Assembly: GCA_034687125.1 (NCBI GenBank)
Contig: JAQGBZ010000020.1
Location: 248,001 to 312,000, forward strand
Reading direction: 5' to 3'
DNA: 64,000 bases
Origin: Neelides folsomi
Lineage: Eukaryota > Arthropoda > Collembola > Neelipleona > Neelidae
A program made the position numbers and the translations under genes. Positions 905-63,400 of this stretch are shown piece by piece; positions within the stretch are counted from its first letter, which is position 1; each line of letters opens with the position of its first letter. The notes under the pieces were generated by a model. That model made no database searches, was not told the DNA's origin, and was given only the letters and a program-made list of their open reading frames with translations.

Positions 905-1380
905 TTATAAAGCTTTTGAGTTTTCTCTTTCGGGCATTAGAAGGATATAAGAAGGATATGAGAAGGATATGTATTGAAATAGGTAGTATGAGTTTTCTAT
1001 AGACGTTGAGAGCATTGTCATATAATTCTCGTTATAGTAATCATAATGTATTTGAATTGAATGGCGAGGGTGCAGAAGTTGGGGTTGCGTTTGGCAAGCT
1101 TTTAGAATCAATTCACTCGGATGACAAACCCTCATCCATCTTTGTCACTCAAAAATGGGCGAATAAAGTTTTTGACTTCATTCGCCCTCTGCGGAGTTCG
1201 CCCAATCCTCAAACAACCAAACACAAACCAAATTTCATTAACAATTTTACACAAAGTGCAGCCATTAACATCCCCTAAGCCCCAAAACTCAAAAACTCAA
1301 CAATTTATAAAACCAAAATTCTTAACCGAAATCCTTAACCCAAAATTAACCAAAATTGAACCAACACATGTTATAGTTTA
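905..1380. other. G-to-C skew-switch island
   Basis: The left part is G/T rich (GGCGAGGGTGCAG, GTTGGGGTTGCG). From about 1100 the + strand becomes A/C rich (CAAACAACCAAACACAAACC). AT-rich sequence flanks both sides. It is not recognisable as a gene; open frames occur on both strands at once. Confidence 0.6.
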
Positions 1381-2279
1381 AGAAGCTTAAGTTAATTAAA
1401 AGCCCGAAAATTGAAATTCCTAAATTTTTGGTTTTAGTTAAATTTCGTTTTAGTTAAAATTGAATGTTTCCTCAATGCAAATGGCGCATTTGTTTTGAAT
1501 GAATTTTGTGAGTCGTTTGTCCATTCGTGGGAATTTCTGAGTGAGGAGTGATTTTGAGAATATTTGAAGGATGATGGGCGGGAGGTTCTTGGAAAATTCC
1601 TCATGAGTTGACTTTGAAGTAAAAGGGTATTTTTTCCTTTTTCATGCGAGGGGACTTCAACCTTCATCATCACATTTCTTCCGACCATAACAACCAACAA
1701 CTGACGGAGCTTAAACTATAAGAAACAAAATGTCTGAGAATTCCTTCCTCATTTACCCATGTGTCTTTTTCAATTCTCTCTCTCTGTATATTCCATACAT
1801 ATTCTCTCTGTGTATTGTACATGTTTCCTCCATATCCTGTGAATATCTTTAACATAATTCTCTCTTCATTCTCTCTTCATTCTCCCTCCCAGATGACTAT
1901 GAGTGGAGTTGTCAATGAGAGTCCTCCGTTGGTGGCTCGGATTCAATTTCATTCAGAATCGGAGTGACAGAAGGTCCAAACCCTCACGTACCTCACCAGC
2001 CATACAAAACACCCGAGTCACATTTCACTCACACTAAAACAGATTCAAAAATATCAAATTCTCAAACCATAAAATACAAAAATTTCCACTAAAATCAAAA
2101 ACTGTTTAAATCTGCTCAAATCTACATAAATCTTAAGCAGAAAACAGAAAATTGAAACTAAAACTTAAAATTTTTTCACTTTTTATTTAAACTTTAAAAA
2201 CTAAAATTGAATAACTTCTAAGTTATTTTTTAATCTCAACATAAATTGTGTTTGTTGGAATGTATTTATGTAATGTATT

Positions 2280-2760
2280 TATGTAATTATAATGCAATGC
2301 ATAATAAGGATGAATTAAGGTAGGGGTGAATAATTAAAAAATGTTTGATTTCATCAGAGAGAGTGAGGAAAAAGGGAAAGTTTTGAAGGTGTAATGGAGA
2401 TGGTCTGAGTTGAATTGATGTTGAATGGAGATAATGGGAGAGTTTGGTGGCGTCCAAATCTTGTTTGTTTCCCTCTTGGAAGACAAGTGAGAATTTATTG
2501 CGTCGGTTCATTGGGAGACTCAAACTGTGAGGTTTTCTCAGGTCACTTTTTCCAATCAAAACCCAAGGTATTTAATATGCAACCAGAACCCTTCGACCTC
2601 ACAATTCCTCCCCGAAGGAAAACTCTTTGTCGGCCCAAAACCCTCCATTTCCAAAAAGACAGGACAAGTTGAAGGGCCTTCTTTTCAACTTCAAAAATTC
2701 CCGTTCTTATAAAACTCAAACTCACCATATAAAACAAAACTTTACAAAATAAAACCAAAA
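2280..2760. other. G-to-C skew-switch island
   Basis: Hand counts: 2341-2460 has 41 G and 7 C, while 2581-2700 has 16 G and 38 C. The switch is near 2540. TATA-rich spacers flank it. Function is unknown. Confidence 0.65.
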
Positions 2761-2829
2761 TATATTACCTGTATAATAAATACAGAATATGGTTAGTACA
2801 GTATATGGTAAATATATGGTAAATATATA

Positions 2830-3330
2830 TAGGAAGTTAATGTAGCGGTTTTAGCGGTAGAATGGCGGTAAGGAGCTGTTTACTATTGTATTGGGTGTTA
2901 TGGTCATAATTTAAATAATTCCTTGTGTGTTGGGTGCTAAAGGGTTGTTAGTCATTTTATTGGACGCCATGGGGAGGGCGAAGGAGAATTCCCAGCTTGA
3001 ATTCAGTTCCAACACGAAGGAAACAAGGAGTTGTCCTCCCGGAGGTTAATGTGATATTAAATTCCCCAACATCGCCGGTGGGTCATAAATAATGTGACGG
3101 AGCGACCCGTCGCCTCCACGAGGACCAGAAGTCACTCAAATCCTCCTTTACACTCCCTCAACACAAGCACAAACAACACGTTATTGGAAAAAACTCCCAC
3201 CTTGCTACAAAATTATTATTCAATAAACGATCCGTTTTTTTCATCAAAACGAAAGTGTGGTCTTTTCAAAACTCAACACATTCACAAAAAATTTAAACTT
3301 TTAAAACTAGTTACAAACTATAAAAACTAA
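2830..3330. other. G-to-C skew-switch island
   Basis: The left arm is G rich; 2821-2940 has 33 G and 9 C. The switch lies near 3090, after which the sequence is C/A rich up to the AT spacer at 3330. It is adjacent to the preceding island, with only a short TATA-rich spacer between. Confidence 0.6.
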
Positions 3331-3589
3331 ATAAGACTATGAATTTATGCATAAATGAATAAATAAATATTATTAGCTAAATTTTAACCTTTACCACTCT
3401 TTTTAAAAATATCCTAAATGATGCAATAACGATTAGATACGATAGCTAAATATTGCCATTTTTGTCAATATTGGCAATATTTAGCTATTTGTATTATTTT
3501 TTGACTGGGTGATTTTTTGTACATAAAATAAGTAAAAGGCCAAGAATTCTGTAAAGATTAAAGTCAGTTTAGAAGATGTTTAAATAGAT

Positions 3590-3960
3590 TTATTAGGCTG
3601 AGTTTGTAGGTCGAATGTCAAAGTTCATTGTTTTATTCCTTGAGGGAGTTGAGGGATTTTGTGTGGGTTTCGCGGGAGTTTTGAGTTTGAGGGAGTTTGT
3701 GAGAGGAAATGAAATATAAATTCGAGTCTTCTTTTCTATCAATATTTTTCCTTTCAAGTTGTCAGGAGCTTTTTCGTTGGCCCCCTCTTCAACTCCGACA
3801 TTGTCTGTCAACCGGAGAGGGATGTGAAAAATGAACGCCACTCTCACCCTTCACTCCATCACAACCCAAAAGAACCCACGTTTTTATTTAAAACTACTCC
3901 AAATTTCACCCGCGTCACCCTTAAACTCTCAAAACCGGAAAAACTAAAAACCTTCAAAAA
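3590..3960. other. G-to-C skew-switch island
   Basis: The left arm contains runs such as GAGGGAGTTGAGGG and GGGAGTTTTGAG. After about 3770 the + strand is C/A rich (CACCCTTCACTCCATCACAA). It ends in the 38-bp tandem repeat that follows. Confidence 0.6.
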
Positions 3961-3982
3961 ACTCCCAAAACCCTATAAAACT

Positions 3983-4096
3983 GAAAATTTTAAAAAACTC
4001 TTAAAAAACATTAGAAAACTGAAAATTTTAAAAAACTCTTAAAAAACATTAGAAAACTGAAAATTTTAAAAAACTCTTAAAAAACATTAGAAAACT
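3983..4096. repeat. 38-bp tandem repeat, three copies
   Basis: Three identical or nearly identical 38-bp units start at 3983, 4021 and 4059. Each contains GAAAATTTTAAAAAACTC followed by TTAAAAAACATTAGAAAACT. The near identity suggests a recent expansion. Confidence 0.9.
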
Positions 4097-5199
4097 TTAA
4101 ATAAAAAACACTTTTAATTCATTTTTAAAACCTCCCGGGAATTTAGAACAAACTCACACTCATGTGTACAGTATATAGTCATGACTCGCATTCAGTTCAG
4201 TATTTAAGCTCAAGTGAATGAATGGCATCTTATAGTATATTGGTAGTAGTTGTCTTATTATAAAAATGACGCGGGCATTTTAAAAATTCATGAAATTCTT
4301 GTCATATTTAAAGTGAAGTTTGAAGCCTGGGGTCTTTAACATTAAATGCGGTTGGTTGTGTAAGACATGTTTGGAGATAGGAAACCTCGCCGGCGGAATA
4401 CTCAATGACAGTTTATGGTCGTTGAGGGTGGAATTCGGGTTTTGGAATTAATCAGCGACGGCCTTGGTTATTAGTCGGCAGGTTTGAGGCATCTTGACAT
4501 CACGTCACTTGACGTCCATCAACCAACCAACCAACTCAGGAACTCACAACCCAGAAGGGAACTCAAAGACAACTCACGAAGCTTCATATAGGAAATTCAT
4601 ATAGGAATTACATAGCAACTTATACAGAACTTCACATCGGAACATAATATAGAATTTAGATAGGAAGTTTACAATGAATTTGAGTCAGAAACCCACAGAG
4701 GCAGATTGGGATTCTAACGATGACGGCGATTTGACGATAAGCTTCCGACCGCCCTCCTCAAAAACCTAAATCCCACACAGGACAAATACAGAGAAAAATG
4801 CACGGGAGTGATAGGAACATTCGGATTCATTATTCAACAACCATTGTTGGTTCAATCACCAACTCCCTTCATACACAATTTACATACTTAAAGACCAAAC
4901 ATAAAAACATATTGGAATTACATTAAAAAACATACCAATCATGAAACATCTACACATGTTAATAGAAAGCATCAATATAAAATATTATCAATATATTATC
5001 AATATATTATTAATACAATATATATTGTATTATTAAAATGATTATTTTATAGGCTTGATTTTAACCAACAGAATATTTATAAAAATATTATGATGTTTAT
5101 TCAATAAATTTTAAAGTCTTAAGCATTTAAGTATTTTTAAGAGTGAGTTAATTTATAGAGGTTTTATATTTATAGAATTTATGAGGATGTTTGAATGTT

Positions 5200-5520
5200 T
5201 TGAATTACCAAAGCGTGCCCGAAGATTTATGTAAATGGAATAGATTTAAGATTGATGGTTAGAGTCTTTGGGAGTTGTGTAGTAAAAGCGAGTATATTTT
5301 GAGATTTGGGTTTTTGGGGTTGTGAAGGTCAGGGGTTTGAATTGGGGATGATAATGGAGGAAGTGAATGGTGAGAAATGCATGGGGACAAACGGGAGCTT
5401 CCGACTATAGTCCAAGAGCTATGAGACATAAAAGTGCAACAACAGGCTCCTAAATCACTCAAATAGAAAACCCAAGGAATTCCCAAACCTATACACTTAC
5501 ACTTTCATTCACATCACTTT
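5200..5520. other. G-to-C skew-switch island
   Basis: The clearest unit by count: 5281-5400 has 46 G and 6 C, and 5401-5520 has 13 G and 33 C. The switch is abrupt at about 5400. It ends about 350 bases before the Scr homeobox exon. Confidence 0.7.
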
Positions 5521-5788
5521 TAAATACATTTAACAGAATTAAATACAATTAATTAAGATACGATTAAAATAAAATTTATATTAAATGACACAATTTTATA
5601 TTCAATATAAAAATACCAAAAATATAATAAATATATTAAATATAATATAGATATGTATGTATATCAGCTGAAGTGGAATTGATCTATCAATTGTGATTAA
5701 AAGTTATAATATTAAATATTAATTAAATAATTTAATTAGGCGTATAATTAAATTGAAATTGAAATAAATTAAAATTGGCGATTAATGA

Positions 5789-6193
<405 letters not shown>

Positions 6194-6301
6194 AATTTAG
6201 GTCTGCCCTGTTCCGACTACAACTTCGCCGCCGCCGCTGCAGCCGCCGCCCACGCCCAGCAGCAGTATCATGAGGATTTCCTGGGACAGCAGAACTTTTA
6301 A
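6194..6301 (+). other. Open in-frame extension after the Scr UGA stop (35 codons to TAA)
   Basis: Seen directly: the Scr frame continues for 35 codons past the UGA at 6191-6193 and ends at TAA 6299-6301. It encodes a protein-like tail: LPCSDYNF, eight Ala, HAQQQYHEDFLGQQNF. Base composition is GC rich, like the exon and unlike the AT-rich sequence that follows. Three explanations are open: UGA readthrough; an 81-nt in-frame intron from 6120 (GGG|GTCC-like donor with GT at 6120-6121) to the good acceptor AATTTAG at 6200, which would remove the UGA; or a decayed former C-terminus. An error in the base calls is also possible. Confidence 0.6.
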
Positions 6302-6716
6302 AAACAATTCTGCTCAAGACGCTCTGAAACATCAAGGCCAGACACTCATTACCTGTAATAATCACTTGATTGCAATTGTACATAATATTAATTGCAATTG
6401 TGCATATTAATTGGCAAAAACCCGCGAATTGATTATAAGCGGGAGGTTTAAAAAGAGATGTCAGAAACCAAAGAAATCCCCAAGAGGTTGAATTCGGAAC
6501 AGGGAATTTTCCCCATTTGGACTTTAATCAACAATTTCCATTTTAATATTAATTAAATATCATTTTAACCAGAAAAGAAATTTAAAACTAAAGATTTTAG
6601 TTATTTAATTTTTAATTAGATTTTTAATTCTTATTTAAAACGGCAATATTTTGATTAAGAAATTCTCACCAGTTAAATAAATTTTAATGTAAATCTGCTT
6701 AATACTCAAATTGAAC

Positions 6717-6779
6717 TTAAATTCTCATTAAGGTTATCTTTAAATTCTCATTAAAGTTGTCTTTAAATTCTCATTAAAT
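6717..6779. repeat. Short tandem repeat, about 22 bp, three copies
   Basis: Three copies of a unit built on TTAAATTCTCATTAA followed by a GTT-containing spacer, in the AT-rich flank downstream of Scr. Confidence 0.75.
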
Positions 6780-9092
6780 CGAATGTGTTTAAATTCTTTT
6801 AAAGTTAATTTACCATTTAATTCTCATTATTGGTTTCTTTAAGAGTCAGAGCGATGATTTTAAATTTTGTTTTTTATCGATATGAAAAGGAAAAGGCGTT
6901 GATTAAAGTTCAAAGTCATTGAACTTCCCCAATCTAAAATAGTCTTAAAGGTGTAGAAGAAGGTTGAAGTTTTTCATTTTCACGTTTCGTATTTGTAACG
7001 CACCATTTGGTAAATAAATGAAGGAGTGATATTCTGCGCTCAGGTTAGTTATTTAAATTTCCTCTATAGCTAAACTAGACATTTATATTTAATTAAAATT
7101 TACTTTGTTAAGATATAAGGAAAAAAGAAAAACTCACAACCTTGAATTTAGAAAAATGATTCAATTTCTCATTAGAAAATGAATCTTGTTAAATTCATTC
7201 AAAATGATTTTCACATTGAGAATGAATCTGATTTTCTCAGTGAGATCTTTCAAAGGTGTGGGATTTTGTGAAAAAACCGGAAGTTACAAAGCCAGTATAC
7301 GAAAATACTCTCTTGATAATTTATAAAATGAGTCTTTAATTAAATAAAGTTAAAGTTAATTAAAAGTATTATGATGATCAAATGTATACAAAAAGTCATT
7401 TTAAAGCCTATCAAAATAGAAGCATTTCTTTCATAGCAATTCTAAAAGTTTAGGAAAAATCCTGAGGCAAATGCCGTATTCGTGAGGAATTGAATAAAAA
7501 ATAGTGCTAAAAATTTTAAGCCAACGAGAAATTGAAGTAAAGTTAATTAAGATTAAGAAATTAATTAAAGTTAATTAATTAATAATAAAATTAATTCTAA
7601 ATGTCTTTGTTTACGAAAATCGCCAAAGTTTTTAAGCGTGAATTTTTTCAACTTCTGCTTCTTCCTCCCCCGAGTGAGTCTCATTTAAATCCCCGTGTAA
7701 AACTAAATGTAAGATTTAATTCTTAAATGAATTTAAACAATCGTCATTAAAAAAGTATGTAAATTGAATGTAAATAATCGAAGATATTTAAAAAAAACCC
7801 GTTGTAGGAATAATGTATAAATTTTATTTCTGTATAAATCCTACGAGTTGTCTTTAAATAAAGATCTAATTAAATATAATAAGAATAGGAATAAATGTAA
7901 ATTGTAATTAAAAATTTCCGGTTTGATTTTAAGGATTTTCAAGTTACCAAAAATGTAAAAGGAACGTGAATGTAAATAGCGGCTTCATCAAAACTCATAA
8001 AAAACCTTGACGTAAATAAATTAATAAGAATTCGAAATGTGTACTTATGTAATTCAATACTAAACTTACATAGGATTGGATAGAAAAACCTATAAAAGAT
8101 AAAAACAACAATTCGTATATTAATTCCTATATTAAGTCTTGCTTTTAATTCGTATATTAATTCCTATATAAAACGTGTAATGTTTCTCTCATAAATTACT
8201 GAATGTCTGTTCTTGTCTGCTGTGGTTGTGTAGGTTAAGATTTGACATAAAGATTGGCAGTTTTTTTCACATCCGTTACAAAACCCAGTTTTTTAACAAG
8301 ATTTCGCTTTAATCTATTTCTTTTATTCATGAAATAAATTCATTATTTAATTTTTAATTAATTTTCTACATGGTTTTAAAATTAAAATTAAAAATTTCCT
8401 TTTTGACAAAATTACATTCTTACATTTACGTAGTTCTTACAACGGAAAATAATTAAACTTTTTTAAATGGACTTTTGACATTTTTCTTCTGACCTAAAGC
8501 CTGAACTAGTCAACGTCACTTTGGAAGGAAATGGAGATTGACATAAAATGGAATTGACATTTGATTTTCAAATTGACCTTTGAACCATTAAATTGAAATT
8601 TTTAAAATGACATTTAAATTTACATTTAAATGAAGGACATTTAAATGAGGGACGTTTTGAAAGTGAAAGACGTTTAAAACTGAAGGGACATTAAATGAAG
8701 AATGTTTGAATGACAAATGTGTTTATGGCAATTTGTTGATTTATTTCAATTACACGCCGGTGTTGAAACAAAACTTATTTCCTTTGGAATGTCCCAATGA
8801 CTTAAAGTAAGAAATAAACTTTAACTTTATTTAACTCCTGCGTGTTAGAATTGAGAATTAAGTTAAAGAAAAAGTTAAATGTGTAAATGAATCAAAATGT
8901 AAATCGTTGATCTCAAAGGCCTAAAAGTTGAATTGAAATCCCCCGTTAGAATTCCTTCAAAGCCTTTTATTTTTTATTTTAACACACATTTGTTATTTCA
9001 CCAATTTCAATGAATACAAACATTTTTGGTTCTACATTTTATTATTATTTAACCAGAACATTTAAACATTAAATATTAATATTAAATAAGGA

Positions 9093-9141
9093 TTAATTAA
9101 TTAAAGTGTCAATTAATTAAAGTGTCAATTAATTAAAGTGT
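9093..9141. repeat. 16-bp tandem repeat, three copies
   Basis: Three head-to-tail copies of AATTAATTAAAGTGTC. The core TTAATTAA is palindromic. Confidence 0.8.
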
Positions 9142-9639
9142 TTAATTGATAGTTAAATCAATATGTTAAATGTCATTTAATCATTTAAGGTTTCTCTGTG
9201 TAGTTTAGGAAAAAGTTTAACAATCCAAGTTTGATGAATCCAATTGTAATTGAAGTATACGTGAATATTTATAAAGATAAAGATAATTAATTATTTACAA
9301 ATTTGTGACTCTGTAATATTTACATATAAATACGTAAGATACATTTTTAGTATACGCCCTCGAAGGAAAGAATTCTCATTTCTCTACAAAAAAGAATTGT
9401 TGATGTCAATGATTTTATTTGAAATAAAAAGGACAAGAAAATTTGAACTCAAATTCATTTACTAAATTTTATTTACATTAATTACAATTTACTAATTATT
9501 CAAAATAATTCATATTTAATGAATTAAATTCATTTAGTTAGTTACATAGTTAGCTAGTATTAATTAGCTAGTTTAATTGATATTTAAGTTAAGAATCAAA
9601 TTGATAGATTTATTAACTCTAGTTGTTTTATTGAGTTGT

Positions 9640-10140
9640 TGGGAAGTGGCTTGACTTTTAAATGTGTTTTTAAAAACTTCGGTTTGTGAGAGCTTAGCGA
9701 GAAATGGAGGACGAGAGATTTTAATTCCTGGTTAAACATTCCTCCTTTTTTATTTGGTTAGATCTCTCGATTTGAGATTAGTTTGGATAGTTGTTCATTT
9801 AACTGTTTAGTGCAGACATATACCCCATATATATCAGATATATATGTTATTATTTATATGTTGTTTAGTAGGACGTGATGAGATCGAGGATTTGGAGTCG
9901 GGAATTGAAAACTAATTTTAAAACACGTAGATTCCCCTTTACAACCCCATTTCATCTCTAAAAATAAAATTTCCATTGACTCCTAATCTCACCGACTTCC
10001 TTTACAACACACAACGCTCTTTCTTGGCTCGCCCGATTCCTCATCTTCTATAAGGAGGAAAATCCAACCAGCTGCGGACGTCCTTTACAAAACCCACAAA
10101 CATCACAAGACACAAAAATTCCGACAAAAACCAAAAATAT
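9640..10140. other. G-to-C skew-switch island
   Basis: The left arm is G/T rich (GAGATCGAGGATTTGGAGTC). From about 9905 the + strand is C rich (CCCCTTTACAACCCCATTTC). It is the first clear island after the AT-rich Scr 3' flank. Confidence 0.6.
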
Positions 10141-11544
10141 AAAAAAATTAAACTTTTAATCACATTTAGCATTTTAATCACAATTGCTTTAATCACAATA
10201 TGAGAATCCAAAATAGTAAATATTATAATTAATTATAATTAGTATTTATTTTATGGTAAGTTAACAATATTGGTATTAAGACTTATATTTAGAAATATTC
10301 CAGTATTTTTGTATTGGATATGAAATATTTAGATTTTTCAATTCATAATTTGTTTTGGGTCTTTAAGTTGTTCGCACATCATTTGGATTTCTCCTCCCTC
10401 CGTTTTGTATCTCATTTAGTAGAAAAACCCGAAGATGGATTTCCCATTAACTCATTCATTCAATACTTGAAACATCCCGACAATCTTAAATTCTTTTTTT
10501 AACAAATTAATTCAAATTCAAATAAGAAATCAATTCGATATCCCAATCCCAATAAAGCGCCACCGAATTCACACTGCACTATATCTTTTAAACCGAAAAT
10601 AATTAATATATTTTAAAATTTTTTTATAACTTTAATTCAATAGCTTCTTCTTCTTTCACTCAGAAAATATTTTTGTTCATAATTCCATATATCATTATTC
10701 AATCACAATTATAATAATAATCACAATAAAATTATAATCATAATTATCATTATAATCATTCTTATAATCATCATCTGTTTAAGTATTAAATAGAAATTCT
10801 TCAATCCAAAGCGTGTTTTCTATAAATCTTATAAATATCTTTATATTTGTAAGATCTCTCGGTTTGTTTTTTGGTCTGATGGTCTTTGTATAAAAAAGGG
10901 ATGTTGGGAGAGTCGTTTGGTTGTAATTCATCATTCTTCTTTCTTGAGTCAACAGAACGTGAAGACAGGAGGAAACCTGTCAACGGAATCAACCGACCCG
11001 ACCGATTCTCTTTTATAAAACATACAATTTATTCCAACTATACAAACACTTTCATCAATATCACATAATCATATTTATTACATAATCATATAATACTGAT
11101 CACTAATACTCATAAAACTCATATTAATACCTTCCTTTAATTTTATTACAGATTTGGAATTCGCGGCTTTAAAGCAGTTTCAACTAATCGTCGCATTAGA
11201 TAGTTTAGTCGCAAATTTTAGGAGTCGCAGATTTTAGTTGAATGATTTATTAATTTGATTGACTCTTTTCAACGGAGGGTTTTTGGAGTTTGTGTATAAG
11301 TAGATTGATTCCTTGAGTTCCGAAAACCTCACGCTTCTTCCCATATACTTTCATTGATTTATTCGGCGCTCCTTTTAATCTCCTACTTTTAATCTTGTCA
11401 AATCTCCCTTTTACATCATTTTTAGATAAAATTATATTCAAAAAACCTCCAACAACATTAAGACCATATAAAAACTCCTTTGAGTTTAACCACAATTAAT
11501 TAAACATCTTTAACAATAGTTTTTTATGATTTTAATGCAAAAAC

Positions 11545-11573
11545 GGTTCAAGAGATGTCAAATCTCTTGAACC
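11545..11573. repeat. Perfect 12-bp hairpin
   Basis: GGTTCAAGAGAT (11545-11556), a five-base loop, then its exact reverse complement ATCTCTTGAACC (11562-11573). The surrounding 11500-12000 lacks the island pattern and has another inverted pair, AAAACGGCA near 11660 and TGCCGTTTT at 11743. It may be a remnant of a mobile element. Confidence 0.7.
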
Positions 11574-14095: not shown

Positions 14096-14170
14096 CAGGG
14101 TGGGCCATAAGTTTCTTTCTTTTTTAAATAAACAATTGTATAAGAAAGAAAGATATTTATGGCCCATCCT
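14096..14170. mobile_element. Short hairpin MITE-like element
   Basis: About 75 bp with near-complete terminal inverted repeats. The left end reads AGGGTGGGCCATAAGT and TTCTTTCTT. The right end, reverse complemented, reads AGGATGGGCCATAAAT and CTTTCTTTCTT. The stem is about 27 bp with a few mismatches around a short AT loop. GGGTGGGCCATAA-type ends recall Tc/mariner-derived MITEs, but the family is not assigned. It lies about 180 bp beyond the stop codon of the second lectin gene. Confidence 0.65.
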
Positions 14171-47752: not shown

Positions 47753-47760
47753 ACTCTAAG

Positions 47761-52277: not shown

Positions 52278-52490
52278 TAATTAATTAAATTGCCCATTTA
52301 ATCCAAGTGGCTTGAATATTTAATTCAGTTATTTACTTCAATTAATTGAGATGGACAGATAAATGAATTAATTGAAATGAATTAATTGAAATGAACCATT
52401 TTAATTAATTGAAATGAACAAATTGAATTAATTAAATGAACAATTAAAATGGAAATGTCCATAATAAAAAGGTCAGTTCTTCCTAATAAT

Positions 52491-52496
52491 AATAAA
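52491..52496 (+). terminator. Candidate Dfd polyadenylation signal
   Basis: AATAAA 214 bases after the Dfd stop, in an AATAATAATAAAG context followed by T/G-containing sequence. Other AATAAA motifs occur nearby, so use is not certain. Confidence 0.35.
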
Positions 52497-55400
52497 GTGT
52501 GGAAAAATAGTATTTATTTTGTGAAATCTCCTCGAGCTCCGCGCTCTTCTTTTTCAAACGAGTCAGTGCTAATTAGAAGAAGAATTAGAAAATTAAAAGT
52601 TTAAATATTTAAATATTTAAACAAAAGTCCTCGTCGCCGTCTTGAAAACGTCTCAAATGTGTTTGCCATTTTTTCGTGTGTTTTTTTCCTCTCGTTCGTT
52701 TTATTCCTAGTTATTTCAACGATGGTTTCAAAGTTCCTTTTTACTGAGATTTCTCACAAAAGAAAGCTCGCAATTTTAAGTTCGTCCTCATCGTTGACAA
52801 TTTTTTTTAGTTTTTCTCATAAAAATGTTTTTTAATTAAATATTGTGTTAAATATTAAATTTTAATTAATAGAATCCAGAAATTAAATTTTCACCCAAAC
52901 TCCAACTAGAAGTTAATATCAATATTTAAATTAATTTGATCATTTTATAAATTATTAATTGGTGTTATTGTAATTATAAAGTGATTTTACAAATTTTTCA
53001 AAAGTGTATCAAAAAAGAAAATACGAATCTGTATACGTCAATATGTTTAAGGTAAAAACTACTTAAAAGGTTCTCCTAATGAAAAGCAATTAGGAGACCA
53101 ATCGATCTCTTTCACTCAAAATGAATGAAACTAGTGAATTGGAATTTCGGGTTTGATTTTGAATAGCCGAATGTTTAAGATTTAATAATAAATATATATT
53201 CCTAATAATATAAAAAATTAGGGACAAAGTGTGAGTGTGATTTAAATTGATTCGACTGGGTCAGGAAGAGCCGGTGACTGAAAGAGGAAAAATTTATATT
53301 TATTCGAATAAAAAACATGAGTTTTTAATTCCAGTACATTTATTTAATATTAATTATTTAATTAATTATAATTGCAATTAATTCATAGATTTATCATATC
53401 ATATTTGAAGTGAATGAATTACAAATATTTTTATCAGGTTGGTTTAATAAATTAAGTCAAGTGGTTTTTGGAACTTCCATTGAATGTAAATGAAGTCATT
53501 TGGGAATTTACGCGATCCGCCATTCGTTTCACAACATAAAATTCATAATTAATGGCTAATTGACCATTTATGTTCTCTCTCCTTTATCTCCCTGTTTTCT
53601 TCTTTCCATTGAATGAACCAAGTCGTAAATATGTTTTATGGCTCAAAAGGACAGCTAAAATTTTTAGCTTCGCTACAAGGAATTATCCTTTAATTTATTA
53701 AAATCCCCATTTCATATACCATTATTACCTAATATAAGAGACTTATAACATGCAATGTGTAAGAGACGATAACCTGCCAAATTACACTATATTTCAAAAT
53801 GGAGGAATATTCAAATATCTCTAATTCAAATAGAAGTCTTCAATAAAGAATCTTCTTATTATGGATCTTATCCCTATTTCATTATATATTTGATATATAA
53901 TATTTTCAATATATTTTGATATTTAAAAAAAAGTTCACATAGAGTGAATATAAAAAATATTTTGATTAAATTAAAGAAGATGTTTGATTTGTATTTAAAA
54001 TATTAAATGCTGGGAAAGGAGCGTGTAATTAAAAAGCGTATAAATTGAGTGAAGGGCGGCTACTCTAAATTCAATCCACACGTCCCATCCATTTTTAATC
54101 GGGGTGAGTCCGGGTGGGATAATATTTATTGAAAGATGGGCACGACAGATAGATTACCTTCAACTGCGGCTCCAACCAACCCACGACTCTTCTCTTCACG
54201 ACTCCAGACGAACACCAATCCTTCACAAATACTCGCTTTCAAGGGTGCGGTCACGAAACTCCCCAACAATCAAAGACATCAAACATCAAACCTTCAGACC
54301 ATTTACATCAACACGAAACCATCAAACATATTTACCTTTTACTCAAACGATTAAACTTACAAGATAACAAACTGAAGCTAAATAATGATCAGGAATTAAA
54401 TCACGCGCTTACTAAACTTAATAAAACTAAATAATCCGAAGAAATCCCAATACTAAATAATCTGAAGAAATCATAATACTAAATAACGATAGATATCATA
54501 ATAGAAAACAAATTATTGAGAAAAAGAGAACAACATGTTTTTGAATAATTTTGGACAATTGGGAGCGAATTTTAATTTAAAAATAGGAGATTTGGATGGG
54601 AAAAGTGTGTAAGTAAACGAAGGTGTATTCGAGTCCCGGTAATTGTCTCAGTTAGGATATTTGGAATATAATGGGGACCACGCTGGGAGCTGTGAATGAC
54701 TCCTAAGCTTCCAACTTGTAAAAGTGTCATTTAATCCTTTCCCTAATTTACAACCTCACTTTCACGTCGGACACAACGGCATTATTCTAAAAATGGGCTT
54801 CTTCTGTCTCCCCATGCCAAATTCGTCTTTTGGCCCTCTCTCAGACCAACAAGCTCACAAACTCACAAAACTCCTTGTGATGAGTTAAATAAATATAAAA
54901 TCTCCCTTCTTGGAGAAAATAAAATGACTCGCCGCTTTCACAGCAGGAATCAAGAAAAAGCAAAGCGGAAAAAACACATGATTCATCAAATAAAAAATTA
55001 ACTTCAATGCCTTCAATAAAACTAGAAAAATCCCCAAATGGAAAATCATATTAAATCGATAAAATCATAATGATAAAAAACTATAGGCTTTTTAACTACA
55101 GGCTTTACACTTAAAACATAGCAAAATTGTAAATGTGCTTTTGGATGATTAAAGTTAATGTGAATGGTAAAAGTAAGTGCGTAAGTGGCGTAGAGTTAAA
55201 TTTGACATTTTGAATTCCAAACGAGCCGTTTAAACTCCATTTGGTTTCAGTTGAGCTCATTAAAGAGTTAAAGCGTGGAGTGGAGAACTTCAGGGCGGAG
55301 TTTTGTATTAAACGGGACGTTTGAGGTCTTCACGGCATGCGAAGGAAATTTGTCTCTAAGTTGTTTTAAATGTCCTCATTCCCACACGCACACGAAGACG

Positions 55401-57257
55401 GCCGAAGACCCTTCAAGGCCCCCCCGTAGGAATAAGAACAAAAGAAGGAGTCTTCAATTTATGACACATTTTTCAAATACAAACAAATGACAAATCATAA
55501 AGGGCTTAAACGTAGAATTTAACACAAATTAACAACAAAAAATTTTTTTAAAGTTAATTGTACAAATCCGTTTATTTTAATTATAATTAACTTTATTTTT
55601 AAATTAACGATTAATATTTTTAGTTAAGTCCTGTTGGATAAATGATCTTTGTAGAATTAACGGTAAATAAAGATCTCAAAATTCCCATCCCATGAAGCGT
55701 AATTTGTGAATTATTTGAAATTGTTCATATAAGGTTCTGTCCATTGGAGTGAGTTGACTAATTGCGGGATTTGAAAGCCCCTCGAAAAGGTAATTGTGAA
55801 TAAAGGGAGGAAACTCAGAGGTGCGGAACGTCGGAGTTGTCCTATAAGGAATCACAAATAATTAAAGGATCTTCATTTCTTCACTCCTTGCATAACTCAC
55901 CTTTTTTTCATCCTCCCAGAAGGTCTAAAAAGAAATGAGAAAAACCTCCATAGCTTTTTATTGCGCATTCCCCTTAAGCTCATAATTTCAACAGGTATTT
56001 TGTGAAGTTTAAATCCTTTAAATCTTTTATCACATTTAATCTCATATTAGAAATAAAAATATAATCTCATATTAGATACATGATAGAAAATATTCCAAAT
56101 CTATTAAATTCTAATAGCCATTAAATTAATATTAAAGTAATAAAATTTAATTCCTATTGGCGGAATTAAATCAGTTAAATGGAATAATCGGATTGAAGAA
56201 ATAAATACAGTAAATACTGTAATTGTAATATCAATTACATAATAAGCATTTATTTATTTATGACATTTATAAGAAGTTGTAAAGGTGAATTTGTGAATAG
56301 AATATATAATGAAAAGATCCTTGGTGTAAATTGAGGATTCCCCCAAATTGTTTTGTTTTTCTAATTGTCCGAGTTGTTCGTGATGGTCGTGGCCGAAGGG
56401 AGCGAATTAAACTTTTGTTCAATTGAAGAATGTTGTTCGGACATGACAACATTCCTCGGTATTCCTTGGGACATTCTCCCATTTGGAAATAATGTTAATA
56501 ATAATGTAAATAAATACCCGATGACGCGATGAGGTTTTTGAAATGTCATTAAGAAATTTCACAAATCATCCTTCGCCATTTCGAGAGCTAACACAAATAA
56601 TCTTACAAGAAAGAAATCTTGTAAGAAATCCTATAAGAAAGAAGTCTTGTAAGAAAGCTTTGTACAAATAACAATAATAATAATAATAATCCTATAATGA
56701 ATTTCTATGAATTATTTGATTAAACATTTTTAATTTGCCAATTCTCCAAACCTGTAATTGACAAATGAATAATTTGGAAAATTGTTCGAAATCTTTTGTG
56801 TTCTTTGATGGAAATTATATAAAGAAATAATATATGGATTTATATAAGGAAATTGTAGAAAGTTGTAGATTTAAAATTATAGTTGTTTGGGTGTAAGGCG
56901 TGTAAAATTCGTTAGTATTTTAGTTGAAATTGTTAGAAGTTTCTAAGAAATTCCATTTTGGTATTTGTAAAGTCTTTTTAATTTTGAGTTTGGGATTGGC
57001 ATGAGGCGGAGTTTTGAGGATCAAAGGACCGCCGCTGTTTATCTTCGACTTCTCTTCTTAGGAACCAGAGGCGCCGATGAACAATACAGATTAATTATAT
57101 GCCCTTTCAAAACCAACCATATAATTTGTGAGACCAACAGATCCGCTATCAGACAATCTGGAAAATGATGAGAGCGTGAGGAGAAGAAACAACAAAATCA
57201 TCCTCCAATGACTCCCACACTTCATTCTTTTATTACCCTCTTTATTAACATACTAAG
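52497..57257. other. Intergenic DNA downstream of Dfd
   Basis: Plain AT-rich to about 53450, then islands return (switches near 54165, 54720 and 55370). No Hox3, pb or mir-993 is recognised. Short AAT repeats occur near 56680. Confidence 0.45.
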
Positions 57258-57437
57258 ACCATCCGAATTTTATACTAAATCCTGCCAATTTAGACTAAAA
57301 TCAGCCCATTTAGACTAAAAACCGCCAATTTAGACTAAAATTAACCTATTTAGGCCAAAAACAGCGAACTTAGGCTAAAACCGGCCATTTAGGCTAAAAG
57401 AGCGAATTTAGACTAAATGATGCGAAATTAGACTAGA
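57258..57437. repeat. 20-bp satellite-like tandem repeat, about eight to nine copies
   Basis: Units of 19-20 bp share CCAATTTAGACTAAAA or diverged forms (CCATTTAGGCTAAAA, GCGAATTTAGACTAAA). The first three full units are most alike and the array decays to the right. Confidence 0.85.
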
Positions 57438-60400
57438 TAGTTAGACTTCATTAATTAAATGATGTTACTATAAACGTTAATTTTCAATTGTAATTAGCTA
57501 AAACAAGCGACAGCATATAGAAGACTATAGGAGGCGAGAACAAGCTACAGAGAGCTAATTTTGAAATTCATCTAAATATTCTAAGTTGTTCCTTAAATCC
57601 TCTTTGTGTTTTTAATTTCCAATGACAGAAGCTGAGTGAAAGTTGACAAATGGAGAACTGTCATTGTTGGGGTGATGGGGAAATTAAAGTCGTGATTTTG
57701 CATCAAATTCCATCTTTTCCCTCATCTTGGAAATTAAGATTTCCAAGTTTGAGGATTAGGCGGGGGAATTTAAATATATTTGATCAAATTTTGTCCTTTC
57801 CGAAACGTGCGAGGGAATGCGGAGTGATGTTTATGCTTTTGGATTTTCTGTCGTTTGTATCGTCGAGTTTCCTCTTTGTGCCGGAGTTTTGGGAAGGATG
57901 AAAGTTATCACATTAATCTTCCACTCGTTTCGCCACATCTTGACGGCTTCCTCCAAAATGGCATATGAAAGGGATGGAATAAATTCACCATTAGACCCTT
58001 CATTATTTAACTCTTTTCCCTCCACCCAAATCCTCACGATATTGAGAATTAATACAAGGATTACTTTGCCCTTAATTCAATTTAAAACTTTTTAATTCTT
58101 TTTAAACTTTCCCTCACTTTTTAAACTTCATTTTCATTCTACCGTTATAAATACGGTTATAATAAATTTAGTTAGTTAAATTAAAATATTTAAATAAATA
58201 TCAGTACATAATCTATAAAGATATAATCCAAAAATAAGGGAAAAATATAGAAAAATGTTATAAATCGAAAGGAAATATTATAGTTATAGCCAAGTTGTAG
58301 CAAAAGGGGAAAGTACTATAAAACTGTTCATAAAGTTATTAAACTCTGTGACTGTATGTGAATTTTGATGGACATTTTGTTTTTGAGGGTCGAAGGCGCG
58401 GTGTTCAGAATTTTAATGGTTTTTGAAAAAGGGGGCGAGTTTTGGCTGTCAGATCTTTTTTCTCCGGACGACCCAAACTTCGCATCATTCGTCATTCTCG
58501 CTCGAGAGGTTTCATTTCTTTGACTGGGGTTTGAAGGTGTAGTCTGGCGGCCCATTATCAACTTCGCCCGAACCATGTGGAACAAAGACCAAAGGGAAGT
58601 CACAGCCAAACCCGGACCAGAATAGAAACCCGCTAGGCTCACATTTCAACTTCCTCCAACACAAATACTAAAAACAGACGACTAGAAAACCTAAAACAAA
58701 ACCACACACCCCCACTAAACTAAAGACCAAAAATCAAAGACATAAAAGCCAAAAGCTTAAAAATTAAATATTCATACAATATATTTTAAAAACAAAATAA
58801 AATAAATATATTTAATAAATATAAATTTAGTTACTTGAAAGTGTCAAAAACCTATGAATATTCTTTAAAAGTGATCATTTGAGAATTAGCACATTTTTTG
58901 TATCTAAAAGTGAAATTGTGAATTGATGAAAAGAAGATGATAATATATTGGATATATGGTATATGATATACTTATTGGATATTGTATGTATGGCATTTGT
59001 AGCATATGGATTTTCTATGTTTTAGCATGGTCTTCGTAATAAAGTGAAATGACCTTAGATTTTGTTAAGAGAGTGGGTGGGTCTATGAAGGAGGGTGCGA
59101 GTGAATCACGTCATTCAGCCCAACAGCATCAATCATCCATTGTGAATGAGAGAACCATTCGCATATTGGTTCCTTGCCGACGAAGCTAGAGGATTAGCGA
59201 CCAAAAGAGAACCCTTTTTATCCAAGACGCGCGACGAGGGTTCAATTCCGCCTTGTTATCATCCTCCTTTCTCTTACAGCTTCGGATCATCTCCCTCCTC
59301 CATATAATTCTCATATAATTCCCCCCATCCATCTCACCCGAATCTCCTACAAAGTCCAAAACTCTAAGAGAACTCCATTGGGATGAATAGACCTATGAAT
59401 AGACCTATGAGGATATCCATCGTAATACATTCAATATATTGATATATTCACTTTATAGAATATATTCACTACTAGAATATGAGTATGATACAGATGTATG
59501 ATATATGAGTAAAATGTACTGAAAGTAAGGATGATAGTAATGGAGAGTATTTGTGGAGTGCGAAAGAGTTGCGAAGGGTCGCAGCAGGGTGGCGGGAATG
59601 AGCCGGCGGGCCAAGGGGTGCTTATTTGTGTCACTGGATTATTCCATAGTCTGATTAATGGATTCTCGATCCTGCCACTGTTGTTGGAGCTCAAAGAACC
59701 CCCAGCGCACAAAGGAGGAACTCAGGTTGAGAGCGAAGGCTCTTGGACAATATCTGTCACTCAACCGCCCCATCCCAACCAACTCAAAAGACACTTTCAC
59801 GCATTCAATACACACACAACCTGACTTCAAAATCTCAGCCCTTTTTAATTCAAAACATCAGTCACAAAATACATTTTTCACTTCTTTCAATCCTCAATAC
59901 TTTTTCTTTTTTATAACTTTTTCAAATTCACTTCACTTCATTTTAGTTTTTAAAAATTAAAAATAGAGAAAATTGTATTAAATCCGATGTTTAAAATATT
60001 AAAATAATATTAAGGAAGTTATTTAGATATAAGAGTCAAAGTTCTGAATGATTTGTGTGTATTTGATTCTGGATTTGTAATTGTAATCTGAATGTCATGT
60101 TCATTGAGTTGTATTCCAATTGTGTGTTTTGTTCATTATTGGTTGTGGCGAAGACAGTTATGATTTTCTCGTTCCTTCTGTATGACTCGGAGTGATTTGG
60201 CAGAAGAATCAACAGAGGAATCAATTGAAAAACAGTAGTGGTGAATGCAGGGCTTTTTTAAACCTCCGGGCGACGCTCCATGTGAGATCTTCAAAGATGA
60301 TCAAAGATTTTCCCTCAGTCGCTCCACGTCGCCTCTTGAGACGGAGAGAGAAAAAATTGGGAATTGAATTCCAATTTGATCAAACTCCGCCTACCGCCAT

Positions 60401-63400
60401 TATCCGAGAGATTCGCTTTAAACGGCCCACCAAAATCTCATTCAATAAATCCATGCGGGAGATTCGAATAATGTCAAAATGAATTTGAGAATTGGACTTG
60501 CCCAGATTTTAACTGCTTTTGCCATTTCATAAATAAGGAAATGTGTGGGAGATCACAAGGAAATTGTGATTTGCTCCATGAAGGAATTCATAAATTACTA
60601 TTCATAACATTCATAAAGAGGAGAAATATTGAAATTCCCTCTGGAAATCAGGAAAATCGCGACGCCTTCCCAATTTCATAAACAATTTGTCAGGGACGGA
60701 TTTATCCATTCCTTTTTATTCCCCATTCAAATTCATTGAAATTCATTGAAATTCAAAGCCAAATTCTGAACAAAATTCTGAATAATATTCATGTACATTT
60801 TTTAATGTTTAAAACTCAATTTTTCAAATTGTGAATTTTATTCAATAACTCAATTTTATTTCAATATCAGATTTCTTTTGTAAAAGAAGTTCTAAATGTT
60901 GCTATTTATTTCAATATGGATCCGATATCGGTTATAGCTTCTTATAACAAAACAATATATGTAATGTATCCATATTAGGATATTAGATTGATCTTATACA
61001 AACTTATACTGATTAGGTATATTATATAGTTTCTGTATTTGTTATATGATTTCATTGTAAATTGTTTTATGGTTTAACTCTGGATGAATTTAAGATTTCC
61101 GATCAGTCAATTTTTTGTGTAAGGAAGCGGAAGGGCGTAGTGAAAGTGAGATTGTGAGATTTCTTCCCTTTCTCCCGTGTGGATTTGAGACGTTGTGAGG
61201 AGCAATAAAAGCGGACCATAACTCTTGATTATGTGAAATTTGATGGTTTCACGGTTGGGAATTTTCCCCGCTCAGCCGCTCCTTTGTCTTCAATTCAACC
61301 ACCCGTGACAAGAACCAAGCCAAGACCAAAAATCATTTATACAAAGACAGTCTTTGACCATTCCCATTATGAATATCAAAACGAAGAAATTTATTTTAAT
61401 AAGAAATAATTAAATCCTAATTAATGTTTTTTATAATAAATAAGAAAACCAGGATTTTCTTTAAGACTAATTAAATTTTTTATCTTTATTAAATTATTAA
61501 ATGCTGTTTTAATTTATTAAATTTAATTTATATTGTGTTGGACTATGGTGAACTGAATATAATAAGTAAAATGTTTAATTTAAAGAACTTTGATGAAAAG
61601 AATGAAGGGATTTTTGTGAAAGGTTTTTGGGTCTTTTGGAATTTTCCTCTTCATTCATCATGGTCATGGGAAGAAGGCGGAGGTTGGTGGGAAAATCGAC
61701 ATGTCTTGTCCATTTTGACGTCCTCGTTTGATTTCCACTCCCCGGTGTTTTCCTCCCCAATCCCTCTTTGCATTCTTCCTGGGTTGGTTAGATGTAAATG
61801 GACAGGACTTTCCTCTTCCAATCTAATGGAGATAATCGGGGAAAAGTCGATTTTTCCCTTCACACGCCGCTGGAGCTGGCGAGTTTCGAGTTTGTGAGCT
61901 GGAGCGGAGCTGGGCAGGGCGGGAGACAGGCGGGCAGATTTCCCAAACTCCGAGTCTTAAGGAGTGAAGTGGGAAAAAAGTAACAACTTGAGCAGAATAA
62001 TTCAGCCATCACCGGGGACACACAACGATTAATCTTTGTCCATTTCTAGCACTTTATGAGAAAATTTTCCCCTCACCTCGACTGCCCCAGCCGCCGCACT
62101 TCTCACAACAAAATCCCATCACCCGGTTTAATTAAAAACACACTCAAACCAATACGACCACTAGACTTATACATTCAATATTACTCAATTCAAACAAATT
62201 CAATCCAATTATTATATTAAAATTGGTAATTAAATTAATTAAAATAATTTTTATTTATTCTAAATAACCATTAATAAAATATTTAAAATATGAATAAATA
62301 TGAAAATAAAAAAATTATATGGATATGAAAATGATATTAAAATGAACATTGGTGTTTGAAATATTTTTCTAAAGATGAGAACCGAGTTGATCATTTTATC
62401 CTTTTCATGTTGTTTGAAGGGGAGGTTGAGTCAGCAGAAAGAAGAATCAACAAGGTAATTTTGGTTTGTGGGAGCCGACAGAGCCGGTGGAGTGCACGAC
62501 TCGTCCTCAATAGCCAAACTAATTTTATTACTCTCCAAGAATCACCCACCTTGTTCGCAATTACCACACCACTCAATTACAAAATTCCGATTGCCGACAA
62601 TGGGAAGATCATTTGGCCCAAAGCAAGCCAACTTTAAGATCTTCATTCAAACCTTCTCAATTCAAAACTCCTCAATTCAAAACTCTTCAAATGAGGGTTC
62701 AATTAAACATTCTCATTTAAATCCACCTTAGAAGTTGTTTGACTGGGAGATGGGAATTCACTTGCGAATGGGATTCGTTTTTTTCCGCTAAAAGGGACAT
62801 GAAGACATTTCTAAGACATTGGCCGACATGATGGTGTTCTTTTCGACGGCTCTCAATGTCCAACTCACTCGCAAAAACCTTTGTAGAAGATCTCTTTTCC
62901 CCTCACTTTTTTATGTCACACTCATTTTTCTTCAACATTCATCTTCATCATCAAACTCCCCCCACTCAACTCTTTGACAATACCAATTATTATTAACTTA
63001 CATCTCACAAAATACATTCACACAGCTAAATTTTTCTATTTTAATTTAATTCATTTATTTTTATTATTTTATTATAATATTTTATTTTGAACGGTTTCAT
63101 TTAACGAATTTACAGTCGAATATTTTTATGCATGATTAATGAGAAAATGAAACTTGTACTAAAGCTTAATACTGATATAATTCAAAAAATTAAATTATTT
63201 CTTTGAATAAAAGCAATAATGTTAAAAATATAATTTAATAAACTTCAATTTGACATAATTGTTTGAAAAGTAGTGAGATTTCAAATTAAATGACTTTTAG
63301 ATAAATAAAAGTTGAAGAATTTAGGAAAAAATAACACGAGAAAATAATTTCTTCTAATTTTGTTGATATTGAATTTTAAATGTAAAATGATGAAATATTG

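What the first reader, a model, noticed from the sequence alone, without database searches (positions are those of the whole stretch)
905..62730. Intergenic DNA is tiled by units with a G/T-rich left arm and an A/C-rich right arm
Dozens of units of about 0.4-1 kb show the same polarity: + strand G (and T) excess, a sharp switch, then C (and A) excess. Hand counts of G:C are 46:6 then 13:33 (5281-5400 and 5401-5520), 41:7 then 16:38 (2341-2460 and 2581-2700), and 49:14 then 6:40 (59521-59640 and 59761-59880). The pattern equals its own reverse complement, so it is symmetric between strands, yet the arms I compared are not sequence inverted repeats. No standard feature class predicts this. Possible causes are strand-asymmetric mutation from local replication or pervasive transcription, or selected structure.
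Basis: seen in the sequence. Interest (0 to 1): 0.9.

Follow-up and report, generated by a model that had tools for sequence, protein, structure and literature searches.

The report
Strand-biased islands with sharp G-to-C switch
In the Hox region of an arthropod most GC-richer patches of non-coding DNA are G-rich on one side and C-rich on the other with a sharp switch between (more weakly so elsewhere in its genome), which looks like the evolutionary scar of a process that starts at one point and runs both ways.

Summary
The window is the Scr-Dfd part of an arthropod Hox cluster in a 75-Mb assembly. AT-rich spacers (about 80% AT) alternate with GC-richer islands. A polarity-neutral decoder finds 54 of 80 islands starting G-rich and ending C-rich on the + strand and 7 the opposite (52:3 outside coding stretches; 51:1 of 70 with emissions set beforehand). 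The polarity statistic lies far outside 300 shuffles and is positive in 20 of 20 sampled loci and 25 of 27 homeobox loci; four six-letter word pairs show the same order genome-wide (1768:1383). The extra GC is carried almost wholly by one strand on each side. In held-out bases the switch is a step (about 15 bp) while the outer edges fade (about 145 bp), so the pattern is anchored at the switch. Arms are not inverted repeats or one repeat family, and no dominant motif sits at the switch. The T/A part holds only in this window. Best guess: an accumulated footprint of bidirectional initiation, origin-like in polarity (G/T on the 5' side, C/A on the 3' side, as recalled for fly and mouse origins). 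Divergent transcription is a close rival. The mechanism is unproven.

The parts
101..64000 (.). span of the array of AT-rich spacers and polar islands; 65 clean non-coding units, all listed in the Full report section
882..1367 (.). unit, switch at 1106
   Evidence: neutral HMM decode
1483..1891 (.). unit, switch at 1654
   Evidence: GC jump 0.40
   Evidence: G:C 41:7 then 16:38
3596..3973 (.). unit, switch at 3728
   Evidence: GC jump 0.38 at 3780
   Evidence: GC jump 0.53; its part 5281-5520 has one match in the genome, itself
5903..6073 (+). homeobox of Scr (reference gene; not part of the units)
   Evidence: the name Scr rests on recalled residues
9633..10132 (.). unit, switch at 9908
17326..17799 (-). 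DM10-domain exon; its island (17338-17860) has the reversed polarity
24005..24379 (.). unit, switch at 24175
   Evidence: GC jump 0.45
26878..27201 (.). unit, switch at 27130
30928..31316 (.). unit, switch at 31081
   Evidence: GC jump 0.46
32185..32633 (.). unit, switch at 32307
   Evidence: GC jump 0.44
35977..36407 (.). unit, switch at 36295
   Evidence: GC jump 0.47
38709..38785 (+). mir-10 precursor, inside island 37920-39140; begins at the switch (38707) of unit 38547-38764
   Evidence: Rfam RF00104, 54.7 bits
38856..39140 (.). unit, switch at 39014
   Evidence: GC jump 0.55
40945..41312 (.). unit, switch at 41160
   Evidence: GC jump 0.49
44569..44987 (.). unit, switch at 44673
   Evidence: GC jump 0.53
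45689..46986 (.). composite island (+-+-+-+) with the largest listed jump, 0.57 at 46755; the part at 46745-46928 scores as coding-like and is not among the 65
48123..48493 (.). unit, switch at 48343
49062..49490 (.). polar stretch 5' of the Dfd start codon (49572), switch about 49150-49170; not among the 65 because 49141-49411 scores as coding-like
   Evidence: sequence read; jump 0.47 at 49169
51852..52022 (+). homeobox of Dfd (reference gene; not part of the units)
   Evidence: the name Dfd rests on recalled residues
54553..55035 (.). unit, switch at 54699
57727..58038 (.). unit, switch at 57909
62409..62727 (.). unit, switch at 62495

Best explanation
Each unit is the accumulated substitution footprint of a bidirectional process that starts at a nearly fixed point (the switch) in stable open DNA and runs outward for about 150-250 bp. 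On each side it raises or preserves G:C pairs in one strand sense only: C on the strand whose 5'-to-3' direction points away from the switch, hence G on the strand that points toward it. Repeated over evolutionary time at many stable sites, this turns AT-rich non-coding DNA into GC islands that are G-rich on the left and C-rich on the right. I commit to replication initiation (metazoan, origin-like sites used flexibly and in excess) as the most likely driver. SHOWN here: the polarity, its genome-wide reach, the nearly one-strand carriage of the extra GC, the sharp switch and fading outer edges, strand symmetry, no hairpin, no repeat family. INFERRED: that it is mutational rather than selected, that the switch is the start point, that the sites are open, and that the process is replication.
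For: Sharp centre and soft edges in held-out bases: 10-90% width 15.0+-5.4 bp at the switch against 145+-44 bp at the outer edge in the window; 8.6+-5.3 against 71+-15 bp elsewhere. Synthetic ramps show that such a width means a step of under about 30 bp. From spacer to left arm G rises from 0.10 to 0.295 and C only from 0.101 to 0.106 in the fitted model, whose two arms are tied; in held-out bases G rises from about 0.10 to 0.27 and C from about 0.105 to 0.13. GC content is highest at the switch (aligned on the jump itself). Genome-wide: D positive in 20 of 20 sampled and 25 of 27 homeobox loci; word-order counts 439:360, 599:491, 408:306, 322:226. Predicted coding exons share it at their flanks (77 positive, 22 negative of 103), which favours a process tied to DNA rather than to promoters. 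The polarity equals that recalled for fly and mouse origins (Cayrou 2011). Murat et al. 2022 say that mutagenesis at human origins reproduces both a local GC rise and base skews (PMC9645720, passages). Guilbaud et al. 2022 see a GC-skew transition that grows with origin efficiency, in AT-rich surroundings (PMC9303276, passages).
Against: Density: about one unit per 0.6-1 kb, far above mapped origins in fly (recalled). The classical S-jump goes from negative to positive at origins (PMC9303276 introduction), the opposite sign, so a fork-polarity bias alone cannot be the cause. I could not read the sign of the local human skew, which is in figures only. Origin hallmarks are missing: 6 G-quadruplex motifs in 64 kb, long G runs depleted, no CpG peak. 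T/A skew is absent outside the window. The two arms of a unit do not covary in strength or length within the window (rho 0.04 and -0.07; n=65). Over all loci the strength correlation is larger across a spacer (0.29, n=108) than across a switch (0.13, n=330), which fits a centre in the spacer better. Third codon positions show no drift along predicted exons of 400 bp or more. No functional data exist for this genome here.
Confidence: 0.3

Rival explanations
1. Divergent transcription initiation: each switch is a bidirectional promoter or enhancer core; RNAs start there and run outward, and their sense strand becomes C-rich and G-poor, as at plant and fungal transcription starts.
For: [quoted passage not shown] A polar stretch has its switch about 400 bp 5' of the Dfd start codon. 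Polarity is strongest in Hox DNA and stronger near homeobox genes than in the sampled non-coding DNA (means 0.037, 0.017, 0.009), as expected for enhancer-rich DNA. 23 candidate start codons have a C-rich stretch 250-400 bp upstream (-0.10 to -0.15).
Against: PMC555766 found no C excess in any of 10 animals, fly and a tick included. The same 23 candidate starts show no C-rich leader next to the ATG: skew +0.05 to +0.09 in the last 150 bp (starts uncertain). TATAAA has no preferred direction in arms or spacers. Exon flanks share the polarity. Divergent starts usually lie 100 bp or more apart (recalled), which would blur the switch.
Confidence: 0.25
2. Recombination footprint: switches are stable meiotic break sites; repair of the 3' tails with GC-biased, strand-biased mismatch correction adds G:C pairs on both sides.
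For: It explains a GC peak and a sharp centre together, with G on the 3'-tail strand on both sides, and works in exons as well as non-coding DNA.
Against: It needs an unproven strand bias in mismatch correction. Break sites are usually spread over 100-200 bp (recalled). One site per 0.6 kb is very dense. My two literature searches on it listed no direct precedent.
Confidence: 0.15
3. A selected chromatin code: nucleosomes or remodellers read asymmetric G/C and T/A tracts around open sites, and selection keeps the polarity.
For: Quasi-period about 560 bp, near three nucleosome repeats (repeat length recalled). T-rich outer left edges in the window. Purine autocorrelation at 9-11 bp above a Markov null (0.052 against -0.009, sd 0.006, at lag 9). 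TpA and T runs depleted in arms.
Against: No dominant motif at the switch. Arms are longer than half a nucleosome. Purine periodicity is gone at 20-32 bp. T/A polarity is missing in the other loci.
Confidence: 0.13
4. Inward transcription from AT-rich spacers: spacers are nucleosome-free bidirectional starts and RNAs run into the islands, leaving the usual G-rich sense strand.
For: The sign fits the mammalian-type bias and template-strand repair. Island edges defined by GC alone show G on the inward strand. Strength correlates across spacers (0.29).
Against: It predicts sharp outer edges and a blurred middle where convergent RNAs meet; the reverse is seen.
Confidence: 0.09
5. Remnants of mobile elements with long terminal inverted repeats, or one repeat family.
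For: Symmetric composition and similar sizes.
Against: Own arms match no better than arms of other units (20.0 against 20.3). Mean unit-unit similarity is only slightly above block-shuffled units (23.0 against 21.8; best pair 54 against 40). The one unit searched genome-wide matched only itself (that search skips very common words).
Confidence: 0.02

Closest known systems
Nucleotide skew at metazoan replication origins (Cayrou et al. 2011, fly and mouse; abstract recalled, paper not held)
   Same: G/T excess on the 5' side and C/A excess on the 3' side of the initiation point; scale of a few hundred bp; strand-symmetric; sites in excess
   Different: Here read from sequence only; far denser; no G-quadruplex or CpG-island character; T/A part only in the Hox window
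Mutational footprint of human constitutive origins (Murat et al. 2022 PMC9645720; Guilbaud et al. 2022 PMC9303276)
   Same: Local GC rise and a skew transition in AT-rich surroundings, said to be driven by mutation at initiation
   Different: Skew profiled over 20 kb around origin centres, at about 1-kb origin resolution; sign not readable from the text seen; here a step of under about 30 bp repeated every 0.5-1 kb
GC skew at transcription starts of plants and fungi (Fujimori et al. 2005 PMC555766)
   Same: C-rich sense strand over about 100 bp at a point-like start
   Different: Reported as one-sided at genes and absent in 10 animals; here two-sided, in non-coding DNA and at exon flanks, in an arthropod
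S-jumps and N-domains of mammalian genomes (described in PMC9303276, introduction)
   Same: Strand-skew landmarks attributed to replication
   Different: Opposite sign (upward) and a far larger scale

Membership tests
Metazoan replication origin (nascent-strand type) | G/T rich 5' and C/A rich 3' of the initiation point | tested here: met
   GC part: 54:7 islands in the window, genome-wide. T/A part in the window only. The feature itself is recalled from Cayrou 2011, and that the switch is an initiation point is not shown
Metazoan replication origin (nascent-strand type) | G-rich repeated element / G-quadruplex upstream of initiation | tested here: not met
   5 motifs on + and 1 on - in 64 kb, 6 in 200 kb of sampled loci; GGGG and GGGGG depleted in arms
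Metazoan replication origin (nascent-strand type) | Nascent strands, ORC or MCM at the site | not testable with these tools
   no functional data
Plant/fungal-type transcription start skew | C>G on the sense strand at mapped start sites | tested here: inconclusive
   no mapped starts; 23 candidate ATG starts show no C-rich leader next to the ATG but a C-rich stretch 250-400 bp upstream; Dfd fits
S-jump (replication fork polarity) | Sharp change from negative to positive skew | tested here: not met
   sharp jumps are mostly downward, 24:3 at >=0.40
Foldback/MITE element | Arms are inverted repeats of each other | tested here: not met
CpG island | Raised CpG observed/expected at the GC peak | tested here: not met
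   CpG O/E about 0.7-1.0 in arms, 0.71 at the switch, no peak

The most novel reading that the evidence does not exclude
In this arthropod a single bidirectional, strand-biased process, acting at sharply fixed and evolutionarily stable points, has built many and perhaps most GC islands of the non-coding genome. The extra GC lies on one strand on each side, so the positions of open or initiating sites can be read to within about 30 bp from raw sequence without any assay, most clearly in Hox regulatory DNA.
Probability: 0.35. Interest if true: 0.78.

Novelty: new variant of a known kind. Interest (0 to 1): 0.6.

Why it matters
If the switches are start sites, they give a sequence-only map of initiation or open chromatin at tens of bp, and a natural record of which strand is damaged or repaired on each side. 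That would make the open question 'what fixes replication (or divergent transcription) start sites in animals, and do they mutate their own sequence?' testable by comparing existing genomes, without new cell work. It also warns that GC content and skew of regulatory DNA may be set by such a process rather than by binding sites.

Tried and rejected
Hairpin or inverted-repeat arms: rejected. One repeat family: not supported. Single motif at the switch: none dominant, the best 6-mers 3- to 4-fold over a position-specific model. Directed TATA boxes: no orientation (the first edge-anchored bin of that table is inflated by a slicing slip and is not used). Coding arms: no 3-bp period. Start codons: no C-rich leader next to the ATG. 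Protein searches to name the species: no useful name. Literature searches for prior reports of this pattern in arthropod or other non-coding DNA: the listings showed nothing directly on it; this does not prove absence. A cross-switch correlation of arm strength was expected under my best explanation and was weak.

Dropped before counts: L001 (inside the window), L026 and L027 (overlap the window) and L044 (overlaps L038) were left out of the homeobox group, leaving 27 loci, four of them from the same Hox cluster; still held L044 (28 loci). Islands under 80 bp were not counted. Units overlapping coding-like segments (score 14 or more) were left out of the 65; this removed some of the strongest jumps (for example 34930, 46755, 49169, 59661). 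Coding-like segments scoring under 14 and those within 75 bp of a locus end were left out of the exon-flank test. Exons are predicted by codon score, not annotated. The 'sampled' loci are one fixed place (300001-310000) on each of 20 large contigs, not a random draw.
Full report
WHAT THE WINDOW IS. The window is bases 248001-312000 of contig C20 in an unnamed 75.1-Mb, 840-contig assembly. It holds two Hox homeoboxes on the + strand, at 5903-6073 and 51852-52022; the translated residues are those I recall for Scr and Dfd. Between them lies a mir-10 precursor at 38709-38785 (Rfam), its known arthropod place (recalled). Neighbouring homeoboxes on C20 look like Ubx/abd-A, Antp, ftz and Hox3 (names recalled). 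A DM10-domain exon lies on the - strand at 17326-17799, and two ORFs without a Pfam match lie at 42224-43626. So the host is an arthropod with a small genome; I could not name it.

THE OBSERVATION. Sharp downward jumps of G-C outnumber upward ones 61:25 (>=0.30) and 24:3 (>=0.40) in the window, and 89:61 and 17:7 in 200 kb taken from 20 other contigs. A three-state model left free to learn its transitions learned that AT-rich spacer passes into a G-rich state about 15 times more often than into a C-rich state, and that exits run the other way. With transitions made polarity-neutral, 54 of 80 islands run from G-rich to C-rich, 7 run the other way, 10 begin and end alike and 9 have one sign; three piece-permuted windows gave 23:27, 25:22 and 26:21. 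The sampled loci gave 89:24 of 195 islands. Outside the coding stretches of the window, which I listed by hand, the count is 52:3 of 70. With emission values set beforehand it is 51:1 of 70 in the window, 76:16 in the sampled loci and 49:3 in the homeobox loci (minimum spacer 40).

A TEST WITHOUT A MODEL. The cross-correlation of GC content with GC skew is antisymmetric, +0.195 at -120 bp and -0.214 at +120 bp in the window; the sampled set gives about +0.07 and -0.07, the homeobox set +0.13 and -0.11. Skew and GC content also show a damped repeat near 560 bp, in the window only. The summary statistic D is 0.0349, against a local dinucleotide-shuffle sd of 0.0009 (100 shuffles) and a piece-permutation sd of 0.0014 (200); it is positive in 15 of 16 window blocks, 20 of 20 sampled loci and 25 of 27 homeobox loci. 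E. coli and phage T4 give about zero.

WHOLE GENOME. Because only about 300 kb of letters could be had, I counted word pairs over all 75 Mb. G-word before C-word against the same words in the other order: GGAGTT/AAACCC 439:360, TTGAGG/CCCAAA 599:491, GGGAGT/CCCAAA 408:306, TGAGGG/AAACCC 322:226 (the second and fourth pairs come from the tool's reversed-pattern controls). The sum is 1768:1383. The effect is genome-wide but modest.

ANATOMY. In the fitted model spacers are about 40/10/10/40 (A/C/G/T), a left arm 29/11/30/31 and a right arm its complement; the model ties the two arms, but the untied profile is symmetric too. In held-out bases of the window G rises from about 0.10 in the spacer to 0.27 in the arm, and C from about 0.105 to 0.13. 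The added GC is therefore nearly all G on the left and nearly all C on the right; C does not fall in the left arm, so simple loss of C is not the cause. Arms have TpA at 0.55 of expectation and few long T or G runs, no codon period, no CpG depletion or peak, no dominant motif at the switch and no directed TATA box. To avoid circularity I located switches on odd (or even) bases and measured composition on the others. The switch is then a step, 10-90% width 15+-5 bp in the window, while the outer edge takes 145+-44 bp. Synthetic units with known ramps (three sets each) show that such a width means less than about 30 bp (ramp 0: 17-22; ramp 30: 19-31; ramp 60: 24-58; ramp 120: 58-91). The pattern is thus anchored at the switch and fades outward. 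In the sampled and homeobox loci the step is equally sharp (8.6+-5.3 bp against 71+-15 bp) but the amplitude is lower.

WHERE IT IS STRONG. In non-coding DNA the mean polarity is 0.037 in window blocks (15 of 16 positive), 0.017 in homeobox loci (21 of 24) and 0.009 in sampled pieces (33 of 39). The density of called units per kb of non-coding DNA is no higher in the window (1.11) than in the sampled loci (1.16; homeobox 0.77), so it is the amplitude that differs. Predicted coding exons carry it at their flanks, G-rich before and C-rich after in the sense direction: 77 positive and 22 negative of 103, p=3e-9. Splice signals would be expected to push the other way (recalled). Third codon positions in predicted exons of 200-400 bp drift from -0.03 to -0.17 along the exon (n=72), but in those of 400 bp or more (n=27) there is no drift. 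Reversed islands exist: of the seven in the window, three overlap coding-like stretches of the - strand at 15.5-18.3 kb, one is the Scr exon and three are non-coding. The T-left, A-right part is found in 16 of 16 window blocks but not elsewhere, so the general trait is a G-to-C switch, and 'G/T then A/C' is its Hox-window form.

MECHANISM. A sharp centre, outward fade, strand symmetry and presence in exon flanks argue for a bidirectional process that starts at the switch. Inward processes from the spacers predict sharp outer edges and a blurred middle, the reverse of what is seen. Hairpins and mobile elements fail. Among outward processes I put replication initiation first because the polarity equals the one I recall from the abstract of Cayrou et al. 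2011 for fly and mouse origins (not held), and because mutagenesis at human origins is said to create both a GC rise and base skews (PMC9645720: part 1 of 10 and passages seen). Efficient human origins show a GC-skew transition in AT-rich surroundings (PMC9303276: passages). Related origin papers were seen as passages only (PMC7506530, PMC6646384). Divergent transcription with a C-rich sense strand is nearly as likely: plants and fungi show it (PMC555766: parts 1 and 2 of 5 read; PMC3315797: parts 1 and 3 of 4 read), and one polar stretch sits at the expected place before Dfd. But 10 animals, fly included, did not show it, and my 23 candidate starts showed no C-rich leader next to the ATG, though a C-rich stretch lies 250-400 bp upstream.

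AGAINST MY READING. The unit density is too high for firing origins, so most would be potential sites. G-quadruplex and CpG marks of vertebrate origins are missing. Fork-polarity skew has the opposite sign. Arm strength correlates more across spacers (0.29, n=108) than across switches (0.13, n=330), and within the window alone neither is significant. Nothing here distinguishes mutation from fixation bias or selection.

UNITS (start, switch, end): 101-413-498; 882-1106-1367; 1483-1654-1891; 1892-1976-2068; 2308-2544-2726; 2832-3105-3208; 3596-3728-3973; 4163-4490-4638; 4639-4742-4900; 5183-5398-5517; 9633-9908-10132; 10849-10973-11150; 11151-11320-12050; 12534-12616-12750; 12992-13107-13160; 13471-13565-13656; 13747-13937-13994; 14361-14516-14580; 18489-18640-18690; 23742-23816-24004; 24005-24175-24379; 25896-26088-26222; 26540-26618-26704; 26878-27130-27201; 27459-27567-27910; 28613-28675-28795; 28796-28962-29148; 29683-29889-30117; 30361-30499-30659; 30928-31081-31316; 31317-31389-31454; 31738-31823-31995; 32185-32307-32633; 33311-33608-33743; 34037-34283-34389; 35407-35613-35756; 35977-36295-36407; 36855-37034-37208; 37209-37372-37453; 37920-38045-38100; 38101-38156-38412; 38547-38707-38764; 38856-39014-39140; 39313-39455-39590; 39905-39956-40008; 40421-40535-40679; 40945-41160-41312; 41467-41640-41740; 44569-44673-44987; 45689-45919-46189; 48123-48343-48493; 48690-48750-48927; 50946-51031-51390; 54553-54699-55035; 55135-55374-55426; 55733-55841-55981; 56882-57028-57158; 57727-57909-58038; 58348-58450-58503; 58977-59104-59472; 60033-60253-60335; 61117-61266-61365; 62409-62495-62727; 62728-62850-63026; 63794-63940-64000. 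Units overlapping coding-like segments are not in this list (see Tried and rejected).

VERDICT. It is best filed as a strong, unusually sharp variant of the local strand skews known at initiation sites; which kind of initiation (or whether recombination or selection instead) needs one functional map or one polymorphism survey.

Noticed in passing
window 38709-38785: mir-10 precursor between Scr and Dfd, on the same strand; it begins at the switch (38707) of unit 38547-38764 and runs past the unit's end.
   Followed up: partly
window 15.5-18.3 kb, - strand: A DM10-domain exon (17326-17799) and neighbouring coding-like stretches sit inside the Hox cluster between Scr and Dfd; three of the seven islands with reversed polarity overlap them.
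   Followed up: partly
window 42224-43626, - strand: Two ORFs of 229 and 189 aa with no Pfam match, between Scr and Dfd.
   Followed up: no
window, 10 sites (346, 5475, 5952, 15497 ...): GGAATTCC occurs 10 times against 0.57 expected from base frequencies, while similar palindromes occur 0-2 times; in 200 kb of sampled loci the excess is less special (9, beside 10 ATGGCCAT).
   Followed up: partly
arms of the window units: Purine autocorrelation at 9-11 bp is well above a Markov null but absent at 20-32 bp.
   Followed up: partly
whole window: 115 short tandem-repeat rows, e.g. a perfect 38-bp unit x3.2 at 3977-4096 and a 40-bp unit at 57269-57417.
   Followed up: no
G000: Only 6 matches to the histone-fold family in the whole assembly, one of them under the family's cut-off; histone arrays may be collapsed or missing.
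   Followed up: no
window and other loci: T/A polarity accompanies G/C polarity in the Hox window only (16 of 16 blocks; 15 of 39 sampled pieces); unexplained.
   Followed up: partly
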